A DNA stretch of 64,000 bases, taken from positions 3,711,001-3,775,000 of the forward strand of contig NC_019974.1 of NCBI RefSeq assembly GCF_000328685.1. The letters run 5' to 3'. Numbering within the stretch: position 1 is the stretch's first letter; every line of letters starts with the position of its first letter. Origin of the DNA: Natronococcus occultus SP4. Lineage in GTDB: Archaea > Halobacteriota > Halobacteria > Halobacteriales > Natrialbaceae. Of this stretch, positions 14,592 through 38,688 are shown one piece after another. The position numbers were made by a program, and so were the translations under genes. The notes below the pieces were generated by a model. It ran no database searches, was not told where the DNA came from, and saw nothing but the letters and a program-made list of their open reading frames with translations.

Positions 14592-14660
14592 ACGGTCGAC
14601 CCTAGACCGATGTCGCGGATAAGTGTTCAGCAGGAAACATAAGATTGGGTATAGCGGCGC

Positions 14661-15012
14661 TTAACGGACGGATTCGAGCCCCGTGAGAACGGCTGCTTGC
14701 TCGAGTACGGACGTCCGATGGCACCGAACGGTATCAGTATCGTGGTCCTCGTCGACGGCAGCGGGGATCGCGTCCTCGGGCGTGTCGGCGACGAGCGCGC
14801 GGTAGAGTGCCCCTCGAAGCGTCTGCACGGCGTCGTTCGCCTGACGAACTCCTCGGAGCAGTATCGGACGCAACTCCACGGGATCGACGCTGAACGAAAC
14901 TCCAGGGATCTATCCCGACGGGCACGTAGCCTCGCTCGGATCGGCCGTTCTCCCCGGACTCGGACGGGAAAGCCGCGAGGTTTACATCCGCGATGGAGGA
15001 GGACTCAGCCAC
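14661..15012 (-). pseudogene. Hypothetical protein of about 116 aa, probable single-base frameshift
   Basis: The N-terminal part reads from GTG at 15010-15012 (MAESSSIADVNLAAFPSESG, then GYVPVGIDP). The C-terminal part, in another frame, reads VSFSVDPVELRPILLRGVRQ and runs to the stop at 14661. The frames join at the ccc of gatccctgg near 14908-14912 if one base is removed. The whole span is 352 nt, one more than 117 codons. A TATA-like tttaataa lies just upstream (about 15020-15027) on the same strand. The family is not recognised. The alternative is that only the C-terminal piece (from a GTG at 14879) is expressed, or that the match of frames is chance. Confidence 0.45.
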
Positions 15013-15100
15013 CGACGAATTATTAAACCTCGCCGTGACGATCGTTCTCAGATCGTTCGGACGCTGCCGCTCGTCTCTCGTCGATCGTTGGGCTGGCAGA

Positions 15101-15363
15101 ATGGGTTGAGGGAGATTTGAACCACGGTCGTTCCGCTCACTTCGTTCGCTTCACTCCCTGATTCAAATCCCCCGTGACAATTTTTCCAACGCGGATTCGT
15201 CGCTTCGCTCCTCGTCGTTGCGTTGGGAAAAATGGGTTGGGGCAGATTTGAACCACGGTCGTTCCGCTCACTTCGTTCGCTTCACTCCCTGATTCAAATC
15301 CCCCGTGACAATTTTTCCAACGCGGATTCGTCGCTTCGCTCCTCGTCGTTGCGTTGGGAAAAA
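15101..15363. repeat. Two tandem 131-bp repeats containing tRNA-Val 3'-end copies
   Basis: Positions 15101-15231 and 15232-15362 are near-identical 131-bp units, and the tRNA-Val gene begins in the same phase at 15363. Each unit opens with about 20 bp matching the tRNA 3' end (acceptor and T-arm, tgggttg...agatttgaac). It continues with a Ser/Arg-like low-complexity stretch (cgctcacttcgttcgcttc), an inverted copy of the T-arm-like motif (gattcaaatc), and ttgcgttgggaaaa. Unit 1 differs by tgaggga instead of tggggca. This looks like local tandem duplication downstream of the tRNA, or a relic of integration at the tRNA 3' end. No integrase is nearby. Confidence 0.85.
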
Positions 15364-15438
15364 TGGGTTGGGGCAGATTTGAACTGCCGGCCTCCTCCAT
15401 GTCAAGGAGGTGTCATAACCAGACTAGACCACCAACCC
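15364..15438 (-). tRNA. tRNA-Val (GAC)
   Basis: On the minus strand the 75-nt gene folds as a standard cloverleaf. The acceptor GGGTTGG pairs with CCAACCC, the anticodon stem CCTCC/GGAGG encloses the loop TTGACAT (anticodon GAC), the T-stem GGCAG/CTGCC encloses TTCAAAT, and the discriminator is A. CCA is not encoded. No intron is present. The 3' end abuts the 131-bp tandem repeats. Confidence 0.95.
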
Positions 15439-15558
15439 GCCTGGTTTCGCGTCCGTGGCGTCGTGCGCCACCTCGCCTGCACTCGTTCGTTGCCGGCCAC
15501 CGTAATTGAAGGTTTCGAATCGTCCGTCGTGCGTAACTCCTCACCACAGCCGGCGATA

Positions 15559-15606
15559 CCCTTAAGTTCGTGTACGGATTTGGACATCGTAAGACAACTC
15601 CGTACA
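15559..15606 (+). promoter_or_regulatory. trp operon promoter with inverted-repeat operator
   Basis: A TATA-like ccttaag at about 15559-15565 lies upstream of the trpD ATG (15619). Just downstream is a perfect 8-bp inverted repeat, tgtacgga (15571-15578) and tccgtaca (15599-15606), with arms 28 nt apart. The expected transcription start (about 15588-15592) falls between the arms, a good place for a repressor that senses tryptophan. The repressor's identity is not in the sequence. Confidence 0.6.
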
Positions 15607-15618
15607 TTGGTGCTCACT

Positions 15619-16647
15619 ATGCAGGACTTCATCGAACGGGTCACGATCGGGGAGGATCTCACGCAGGACGACGCTCGCGCGGCTTCGCGGGCCGTCTTCG
15701 AGGACGCGACCGACGCCCAGATCGGCGCCCTGCTGACCGCGCTGCGGGCGAAAGGCGAGACCGAGGCCGAGATCGCCGGCTTCGCCCAGGGGATGCGCGA
15801 GGCTGCCCGGACGATCGACCCCGACCGAGCGCCGCTGGTCGACACCTGCGGAACGGGCGGGGACGATTACGACACGATCAACGTCTCGACGACCAGCGCG
15901 ATCGTCGCCGCCGGCGCGGGCGTCCCGGTCGCCAAACACGGCAACTACTCCGTCTCGTCGTCGTCGGGCAGCGCGGACGTCCTCGAGGAGGTCGGCGTCG
16001 AGGTCGAGGCCGAACCCCCCGCTGTCGAGGACGCCATCGAGCGCGACGGGATCGGCTTCATGCTCGCGCCCGTCTTCCACCCGGCGATGAAGGCCGTCAT
16101 CGGCCCGCGCAAGGAGCTCGGAATGCGGACGCTGTTTAACGTCCTCGGGCCGCTGACCAACCCCGCGGGCGCCGACGCCCAGGTCGTCGGCGTCTACGAC
16201 CCCGAGCTGGTGCCCGTCCTCGCGGACGCGCTCGCACGGATGGACGTCGAGCGCGCGCTGGTCGCCCACGGCGCGGGCACCGACGAGATCGCGATCCACG
16301 GCGAGACGCGGGTCGCGGAGGTCGAGGGAACCGACGTCGAGGAGTACGTCCTCGAGCCGACCGACCTCGGGCTCCCCGACCACGAGATCGGCGACATCGC
16401 GGGCGGTTCACCGACCGAGAACGCACGCGACATGCGCGGCATCGTCGAGGGCGACGTCACCGGCGCCAAGCGGGACGTGATCCTCGCGAACGCCGGCGCG
16501 GCGGTGTACGTCGCCGGCGAGGCCGACACGCTCGCTGCCGGGGCCGACGCCGCCCTCGAGGCGATCGAGTCGGGCGACGCCGCGGCGAAACTCGAGGAAC
16601 TGTGCGCCCAGAACCGCGCCGCGCCCCCGGAACAGGAGGCCCGATGA
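15619..16647 (+). CDS. trpD: Anthranilate phosphoribosyltransferase
   Basis: The 342-aa protein transfers phosphoribose from PRPP to anthranilate, the second step from chorismate to tryptophan. Motifs are DTCGTGGDDYDTINVSTT (PRPP-binding loop, about 75-92), KHGNYSVSSSSGSADVLE (about 110-127, where bacterial enzymes have KHGNRSVSS) and VLGPLTNPAGA. The start is the ATG at 15619, which follows a short leader after the TATA element; the in-frame upstream sequence crosses the tRNA-Val gene and is rejected. It is the first gene of trpDFEG, overlapping trpF by 4 nt. Confidence 0.96.
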   Translation: MQDFIERVTIGEDLTQDDARAASRAVFEDATDAQIGALLTALRAKGETEAEIAGFAQGMREAARTIDPDRAPLVDTCGTGGDDYDTINVSTTSAIVAAGAGVPVAKHGNYSVSSSSGSADVLEEVGVEVEAEPPAVEDAIERDGIGFMLAPVFHPAMKAVIGPRKELGMRTLFNVLGPLTNPAGADAQVVGVYDPELVPVLADALARMDVERALVAHGAGTDEIAIHGETRVAEVEGTDVEEYVLEPTDLGLPDHEIGDIAGGSPTENARDMRGIVEGDVTGAKRDVILANAGAAVYVAGEADTLAAGADAALEAIESGDAAAKLEELCAQNRAAPPEQEAR

Positions 16648-38046: not shown

Positions 38047-38688
38047 ATGAGCACGCTCCGACAGCCGGGCGCCTTTGGACGGCCGACGCGTCGCCACGTC
38101 TTCGACGCCGTCGCCGCTGTCTCGGCGGGTGCCGTCGAGGCCGCTTCGGTCGGCCTCTGGTTCGCCCTGGTTGCCGGCTCGCGGACGACGACGACGGCGC
38201 TCGTCGGCGCCGCCGTCCTCGTCGTCGGAATCCTCCTTCGAACGCGGATCGTCGCCGCGGCCGTCGACGGCTGGCGGCTCCGTCACGCCCCCCGGCGAGT
38301 CGGGCTTGCGCTCGCGCTTGCAGCGGGCTGGATCTGCTGGCTGCTGCTGGCCGAAACCGTCGGCTCACCGGCAGGGGCGATCGTCGCGACGGCGCTGCTC
38401 GGTGCAGGAGTTGCCGCCCAGTTCGAACTTGAGGGTGCGACCTGTCGGCCGCGGTCGGCCGACGGGGATCGCCTGGCGTCGATCGTTCCGGGACTACTGC
38501 TCGCACTCGGCGCGGGAGGGCTGCTCTGGGCGAACTGGGCTGCCGGATGGACGATCGTCTCGCCGCCGCTCCCGCTCGGCGTGACGACGGTCGTCGTCCG
38601 GATCGAGGCCGTTCAGCTCGGCCTGCTCGGGTTCGCCGTCCTCGCGGTAGCCGCCCACCGACTGCGGCTGGGACGGCTCCGCGGCTGA
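38047..38688 (+). CDS. Multi-pass membrane protein, function unknown
   Basis: The 213-aa protein has about five hydrophobic helices: at about 17-45 (VFDAVAAVSAGAVEAASVGLW), 50-65, 85-103 (LALALAAGWICWLLLAET), 108-123, 148-168 and 183-200. There is no transport motif. A TATA-like ctatact lies about 20 nt before ATG 38047. The C-terminus is basic (HRLRLGRLRG), probably cytoplasmic. The family is not recognised. It is upstream of a Usp-like gene on the same strand by 98 nt. Confidence 0.75.
   Translation: MSTLRQPGAFGRPTRRHVFDAVAAVSAGAVEAASVGLWFALVAGSRTTTTALVGAAVLVVGILLRTRIVAAAVDGWRLRHAPRRVGLALALAAGWICWLLLAETVGSPAGAIVATALLGAGVAAQFELEGATCRPRSADGDRLASIVPGLLLALGAGGLLWANWAAGWTIVSPPLPLGVTTVVVRIEAVQLGLLGFAVLAVAAHRLRLGRLRG

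What the first reader, a model, noticed from the sequence alone, without database searches (positions are those of the whole stretch)
15101..15438. 131-bp tandem repeats that each begin with a copy of the tRNA-Val 3' end
Seen: two near-identical 131-bp units end exactly where tRNA-Val(GAC) begins, and each unit starts with about 20 bp of the tRNA 3' end; period 131 continues into the tRNA. Known: integrases use tRNA 3' ends as attachment sites and regenerate partial copies. Inference: successive integrations/excisions or slippage duplicated this end. The middle of the repeat is low-complexity and has an inverted T-arm-like motif.
Basis: partly seen in the sequence, partly recalled or inferred. 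Interest (0 to 1): 0.5.

Follow-up and report, generated by a model that had tools for sequence, protein, structure and literature searches.

The report
tRNA-end hairpin repeats in haloarchaea
In salt-loving archaea about a third of the tRNA genes examined, including this one, are followed by short hairpin-forming units that carry both a direct and a mirror-image copy of that tRNA's own end, a plan otherwise familiar from one locus of E. coli.

Summary
The repeat is real: two 131-bp units downstream of tRNA-Val(GAC), which lies on the minus strand. They differ at 2 of 131 positions, both in the distal tRNA-end copy. A unit reads: H1 hairpin, T' (inverted T-loop/T-stem copy), purine-rich hairpin core, T (direct copy of tRNA nt 53/54-73).

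It is not an isolated scar. In four Halobacteria genomes 70 of 200 tRNA genes have a copy of their own 3' end 48-289 nt downstream; upstream 1 of 200, swapped ends 33 of 1000, relatives outside the class 0 of 57. Two genomes lacking the search core give 21 of 58. One core occurs 83 times in 79 contigs, 73 times just after an intact tRNA, and in no viral contig searched. T' covaries with T, while the core is shared between tRNAs.

No integrase lies nearby, and the clear integrase-linked tRNA duplications seen are longer. The array most likely grew by recombination or slippage between tRNA-end copies; the unit is probably a structured tRNA trailer. E. coli tyrT repeats show the same direct-plus-inverted plan. 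Function and original insertion mechanism are unknown.

The parts
15364..15438 (-). tRNA-Val(GAC)
   Evidence: ARAGORN; Rfam RF00005 64.7 bits
15312..15363 (-). proximal unit, H1 hairpin (TTTTTCCCAACGC...GCGTTGGAAAAA)
   Evidence: sequence; fold
15291..15304 (-). proximal unit, T' (inverted copy of T-loop and T-stem)
   Evidence: inverted repeat I3
15253..15290 (-). proximal unit, purine-rich hairpin core
15233..15252 (-). proximal unit, T: direct copy of tRNA nt 54-73 (20/20)
15181..15232 (-). distal unit, H1 hairpin, identical to the proximal one
15160..15173 (-). distal unit, T'
   Evidence: inverted repeat I1
15122..15159 (-). distal unit, hairpin core
15102..15121 (-). distal unit, T copy with 2 substitutions (18/20)

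Best explanation
This is one locus of a Halobacteria-wide family of tRNA 3'-flank units. Shown by sequence: a unit reads H1 hairpin, T' (inverted copy of the T-loop and 3-4 nt of the T-stem), hairpin core, T (direct copy of tRNA nt 53/54-73). T, and less strictly T', match the tRNA they sit behind, while the core is shared between tRNAs and genera. Inferred, most likely: arrays lengthen and shorten by unequal recombination or slippage between the short direct tRNA-end copies, which renews the copy nearest the tRNA and leaves distal copies to decay. Inferred, less certain: hairpins are exchanged as whole modules, and T' is brought to match T by hairpin-templated (quasipalindrome) correction or by selection for pairing. 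Inferred, untested: the unit is transcribed as the 3' trailer of the pre-tRNA and cut off by tRNase Z; in it T' pairs with the downstream T copy and so does not invade the T-arm of the tRNA.
For: 70 of 200 tRNA genes in four genomes have an own 3'-end copy downstream, against 1 of 200 upstream and 33 of 1000 with swapped ends; 21 of 58, 0 of 58 and 6 of 290 in two genomes without the core pattern. 73 of 83 core copies lie 43-314 nt after an intact tRNA on the same strand, over 20 isoacceptors. T'/T pairing 9.78 of 12 against 8.20 permuted, maximum 8.66 in 2000 permutations. Apical pair G-C 14, A-T 12, G-T 2, other 2 of 30 parsed long cores. Folding z of units: median -3.42, 36 of 43 below -2, against 29 of 106 tRNAs without a unit and 8 of 54 upstream stretches. 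Copies bounded at nt 53 and 73. Polarity: in 66 arrays the first copy is closer to the tRNA in 45, equal in 21, worse in 0. Here the two units differ only inside the distal T. Orthologous Natrinema Val-CAC loci keep flank, H1 and T but carry different cores.
Against: T-stem specificity of T' is moderate: 2.56 of 5 own against 1.76 other tRNAs, and 11 of 67 units do not pair better with their own T than with the average other T. T' of this very locus pairs worse with tRNA-Val (10 + 1 wobble of 12) than with six other tRNA ends of the genome (11 of 12). 7 of 43 units do not reach z < -2. Only 42 of 142 units have an uninterrupted H1 stem of 8 bp or more (shuffled 2 of 142, tRNAs without a copy 12 of 133). 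Movement between tRNAs through chimeric T copies is not established: 4 cases outside tRNA clusters against a simulated mean of 1.2 and maximum of 5, and reversed chimeras are about as many (9 against 10 in all). The polarity count is biased, because a second copy was allowed 6 edits and a first copy 4. Transcription and processing were not observed.
Confidence: 0.55

Rival explanations
1. Scars of integrative elements: integrases acting on the tRNA 3' end left partial tRNA copies, and repeated integration and excision built the array.
For: tRNA 3' parts are common archaeal att sites (PMC8371274, passages). Integrase genes sit beside truncated tRNA-Val pieces followed by units in L024 and L111.
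Against: No integrase near this locus. Core absent from viral contigs and unit without match in phages; one plasmid record only. The clear integrase-linked tRNA pieces are longer than the unit copies. Units carry no gene and contain an inverted copy that follows the tRNA.
Confidence: 0.1
2. A non-autonomous mobile hairpin that inserts at the T-loop and duplicates about 20 bp of target (nt 54-73), moved by an unidentified transposase or by ssDNA annealing at the universal T-loop sequence.
For: Sharp limits of the direct copy, the same core at 20 isoacceptors, tRNA genes with and without units in the same genus, different cores at one orthologous site.
Against: No terminal inverted repeat independent of the target: T' follows the target. 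No exact empty site was aligned. No transposase was sought beyond integrases.
Confidence: 0.25
3. A selected RNA element: the trailer hairpins act in pre-tRNA folding, termination or 3' processing, or are released as small RNAs as with E. coli rttR or the leuZ 3' ETS.
For: Same orientation, downstream only; strong folding; pairs conserved through compensatory change; trailer RNAs with a function exist (PMC8166272, passages).
Against: About two thirds of tRNA genes lack a recognisable unit in the same genomes; the set of tRNAs that carry one differs between genomes; no expression data.
Confidence: 0.3

Closest known systems
E. coli tyrT/tyrV terminal repeats (rttR sRNA, tpr)
   Same: Tandem units downstream of a tRNA, each with a direct copy of the tRNA 3' end: in MG1655 at 154, 332 and 510 nt (period 178). 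As computed here, each unit also has an inverted T' (11/13), and for the first unit folding predicts that it pairs with the T copy.
   Different: One E. coli locus was examined; in Halobacteria about a third of tRNA genes in the genomes examined carry units. The E. coli copy lacks the TTCG of the T-loop and includes CCA. No common ancestry is shown.
tRNA att-site duplications of integrative elements
   Same: A copy of a tRNA 3' part behind a tRNA.
   Different: The clear integrase-linked tRNA pieces seen here (L024, L111) start around the anticodon loop; unit copies are 20 nt and lie 47-206 nt behind the tRNA with only hairpin sequence between in the units read.
REP / RAYT palindromic elements
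   Same: Short non-coding hairpins in many copies.
   Different: Tied to tRNA 3' ends in one orientation, with arms that follow the target. The RepRanger survey (PMC12306157, passages only) gave no hit for Halobacteria or haloarchaea; its single 'tRNA' hit is a size marker. It lists rttR and the leuZ 3' ETS as REP-bearing sRNAs.
d(GCGNAGC) mini-hairpins
   Same: Apical GC-GNA-GC with a variable middle base (GNA in 20 of 30 long cores).
   Different: Described for synthetic DNA oligomers (PMC4686876, passages). Whether the archaeal units act as DNA or as RNA is not known.

Membership tests
E. coli tyrT-type terminal repeats | tandem units 3' of a tRNA gene, each ending in a copy of its 3' end (definition recalled) | tested here: met
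   E. coli control
E. coli tyrT-type terminal repeats | inverted T' that can pair with the copy (noticed here, not in the recalled definition) | tested here: met
   for E. coli; for Halobacteria
E. coli tyrT-type terminal repeats | a small RNA released from the repeat | not testable with these tools
   no expression data; rttR is annotated in E. coli
E. coli tyrT-type terminal repeats | match to an Rfam family other than tRNA (an rtT family is recalled to exist) | tested here: not met
   cmscan of 14600-15700 at E up to 1 lists only the tRNA
tyrosine-recombinase att scar | integrase gene or element between or beside the copies | tested here: not met
tyrosine-recombinase att scar | unit present on viruses or plasmids | tested here: not met
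   viral contigs and phages none; one 828-kb Natronorubrum plasmid record
non-autonomous transposon with target duplication | direct duplication with sharp limits | tested here: met
non-autonomous transposon with target duplication | terminal inverted repeats borne by the element and independent of the target | tested here: not met
   T' follows the target tRNA
non-autonomous transposon with target duplication | exact empty sites in close relatives | tested here: inconclusive
   tRNA loci without units exist, but I did not align them with filled sites

The most novel reading that the evidence does not exclude
A target-tailored mobile hairpin: a family of DNA hairpins, held together by G.A pairs and GNA loops, that spreads among the tRNA genes of Halobacteria by recombination in the universal T-loop sequence and remakes both of its arms (direct T and inverted T') from whichever tRNA it lands behind; E. 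coli tyrT would be an independent bacterial case of the same process.
Probability: 0.25. Interest if true: 0.85.

Novelty: new variant of a known kind. Interest (0 to 1): 0.64.

Why it matters
Repeats that carry a tRNA 3'-end copy have stood, as far as I recall, as an oddity of the E. coli tyrT operon. Here the same plan, with an inverted copy predicted to pair with the direct one, follows about a third of the tRNA genes in six genomes of an archaeal class. That turns one curiosity into many natural replicates and makes two questions testable: why a tRNA end is copied downstream of itself, and how a hairpin shared between tRNAs gets arms that fit each tRNA. It also warns that a partial tRNA copy behind a haloarchaeal tRNA is not by itself evidence for a provirus. 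Four searches of an open-access library gave no listed title or abstract start that describes it; I saw listings and passages only, and subscription papers are mostly not held.

Tried and rejected
Integrase scar: rejected as the main account. Chance and low complexity: rejected. The motif CGARCGNAGYGAG as a genome-wide element: 52 hits against 17 for the reversed pattern; its R/Y pair is 16 A-T and 32 G-C against 3 A-C and 1 G-T (my count; Fisher 1.5e-9). But two of the four hits in the window lie inside long ORFs, so the motif alone was not used as evidence. Primer-binding site for reverse transcription: rejected because T' pairing fades at T position 13 and does not reach the acceptor end. 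Copying from mature tRNA: not favoured, since the copies end at nt 73 and no added CCA follows in the sequences read. Chimeric T copies as proof of movement between tRNAs: 10 of 69 explained, 6 of them neighbouring tRNA genes in clusters, leaving 4 against a simulated mean of 1.2 (maximum 5); reversed chimeras 9 of 69 against 0.9 (maximum 4). Ser(CGA) origin of the window unit: suggestive only; the distal T equals Ser(CGA) in its first 14 nt, but the core is identical to that of a Val unit in another genome (L005). Intron-aware ARAGORN gave merged false genes and was replaced. Papers on E. coli tyrT were not found; that background is recalled.

Rows dropped or limits of counts. and 47 sets leave out three locus/tRNA names taken as next tRNA genes. 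One search used 88 first copies (at most 1 edit, no net indel) of the 137 tRNAs with a copy. One search used 67 distinct of 73 units. One search parsed 30 of 31 long cores. In one search the GA positions were fixed by the search expression; the 3x3 loops (GRA/GRA in 27 of 30), triloops and paired steps were free. G141, G030 and G174 were chosen because they had core-pattern matches; G013 and G014 were added to test that choice, with the 30 best-scoring tRNA loci each, and two of the 11 rows of G014 repeat a neighbour's array. In one search, L139 has a core after tRNA-Ala whose T does not match that tRNA.

Full report
Observation. Tandem Repeats Finder and the repeat finder confirm a 131-bp period at 15100-15384. 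tRNA-Val(GAC) is on the minus strand (15438..15364), so the units follow the tRNA. In tRNA sense the two units are identical at 129 of 131 positions; both differences lie in the distal tRNA-end copy.

Anatomy. A unit reads: H1, a hairpin starting directly after the tRNA; T', an inverted copy of the T-loop and upper T-stem; a purine-rich core; and T, a direct copy of the tRNA from nt 53/54 to 73. RNAfold predicts H1 as one hairpin and T'-core-T as a second long one in most of the units printed. In the commonest core, 2-bp Watson-Crick steps alternate with GA/GA and GRA/GRA loops and end in a triloop that is GNA in 20 of 30 long cores (the GA/GA positions were fixed by the search expression, the rest was free). 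The apical pair is G-C 14, A-T 12, G-T 2, other 2 of 30 parsed long cores, a compensatory pattern in a part that the collection pattern left free.

Not a single locus. With other tRNA genes masked, an own 3'-end copy (at most 4 edits in 20) lies 48-289 nt downstream of 18/47, 16/53, 17/49 and 19/51 tRNA genes in four Halobacteria genomes (70 of 200). Controls: upstream 1 of 200; other tRNAs' ends 33 of 1000; 57 tRNA genes of the same phylum outside the class 0 (loci, a sample biased to high-scoring tRNAs). Three of the four genomes were chosen for having the core pattern; two genomes without it give 11 of 29 (two rows repeat a neighbour's array) and 10 of 29, upstream 0 of 58, swapped 6 of 290. 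ARAGORN was run without introns, so intron-containing tRNAs are missing.

The core is tied to tRNAs. One core pattern gave 83 copies in 79 named contigs, nearly all labelled as haloarchaea, and matched 55 of 292 genomes of the class, with no match of the reversed pattern in the table. 73 of 83 copies lie 43-314 nt after an intact tRNA on the same strand. I read the other 10 by eye: five follow intron-containing tRNAs with the same T end, two are cut by a contig start, L111 follows a truncated tRNA-Val beside an integrase gene, L074 follows a decayed T copy, and L089 lies beside an integrase N-terminal domain with no clear tRNA piece. The core was not found in viral contigs; the window unit has no match in phages and matches one 828-kb plasmid record.

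T and T' follow the host tRNA. In 67 distinct units T' pairs with its own T at 9.78 of 12 positions, against 8.20 when partners are permuted (maximum 8.66 in 2000). Covarying positions are 5, 7, 10, 11 and 12 of T; pairing fades at position 13. In a pattern-free set an anti-T-loop is present in 39 of 43 units; T-stem agreement is 2.56 of 5 with the own tRNA against 1.76 with others. In this locus T' fits six other tRNA ends better than Val. T copies are bounded: nt 53 identical in 87 of 88, nt 51 in 23 of 88, first base after nt 73 in 46 of 88.

Dynamics. In 66 arrays with two or more copies the first copy is closer to the tRNA than the second in 45, equal in 21, never worse; a second copy was allowed more edits (6 against 4), which inflates the excess. 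Here the distal T equals tRNA-Ser(CGA) in its first 14 nt and tRNA-Val in its last 6; across all arrays such chimeras are at most weakly in excess, in either direction. In four Natrinema genomes flank, H1 and T of tRNA-Val(CAC) align, but the core is of one type in L226 and another in L231-L233, with a nested insert in L233: whole hairpins are exchanged inside an inherited unit. After tRNA-Val(GAC) nine genomes of the genus have 0, 1 or 2 units (by eye).

Structure. Median folding z is -3.42 for 43 units (36 below -2), -1.06 for 106 downstream stretches without a unit (29 below -2) and -0.77 for 54 upstream stretches (8 below -2). Uninterrupted H1 stems of at least 8 bp occur in 42 of 142 units, 12 of 133 tRNAs without a copy and 2 of 142 shuffles; stems of 7 bp or more have 52 different 5' arms.

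Integrase question. The genome has 13 matches over Pfam's integrase cut-off, none within about 0.6 Mb of the locus even if the contig is circular; none of ten neighbouring proteins is an integrase. In L024 and L111 an integrase gene sits beside a truncated tRNA-Val that starts around the anticodon loop and is followed by a unit. That is the classical att arrangement described for archaea (PMC8371274, passages; Haloquadratum, PMC3119063, passages), and it is longer than the unit copies.

Closest known. E. coli tyrV/tyrT in MG1655 has copies of its 3' end at 154, 332 and 510 nt and, as computed here, an inverted T' in each unit (11/13); folding of the first unit pairs T' with T. The older literature on the 178-bp tyrT repeats is recalled; searches for it gave nothing. 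Trailer RNAs can have a function, as the leuZ 3' ETS does (PMC8166272, passages). The passages seen of the Haloferax splicing-endonuclease paper (PMC7714728) do not mention such units.

Verdict. Shown: the plan, its spread in Halobacteria, its absence in the outgroup sample, covariation, sharp copy limits. Inferred: growth by recombination between tRNA-end copies, module exchange, transcription as trailer. Unknown: function, original insertion mechanism, and whether DNA or RNA hairpins matter.

Noticed in passing
L008, L011, L224, L233, L237 (downstream of tRNA-Val): A nested insert of about 65 nt with two hairpins around a CGTGATGACGA stretch sits in the apical loop of different host hairpins (H1 or core) in different genomes: hairpins inserted into hairpins.
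   Followed up: partly
L024, L111: Truncated tRNA-Val 3' parts next to an integrase gene and followed by a unit: the element seems to have entered at the anticodon-loop end and left the unit on its far side.
   Followed up: partly
G000:C1:1785915-1786095: Four copies of CGAACGAAGTGAG at 56-bp spacing, not near any tRNA gene listed.
   Followed up: no
L077, L103, L116, L127, L135 (Thr-CGT); L034, L043; L115; L110: T copies with an extra base in the T-loop (GTTCACAATC and similar) recur at several tRNAs and genera, while the T' sequences printed for them mostly lack it, which would leave a bulge.
   Followed up: no
window 38535-38631 (+): ARAGORN reports a tRNA-??? with a four-base anticodon; the tRNA family search of the genome lists no match there, so it looks like a false positive.
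   Followed up: partly
L239-L251 (tRNA-Val(CAC), genus of G149): 12 of these 13 loci show no tRNA-end copy behind Val-CAC (L249 has one); whether other inserted DNA took the site was not checked.
   Followed up: no
G141:C3:160610-162592 (L186): A cluster of tRNA genes on a 409-kb secondary contig.
   Followed up: no
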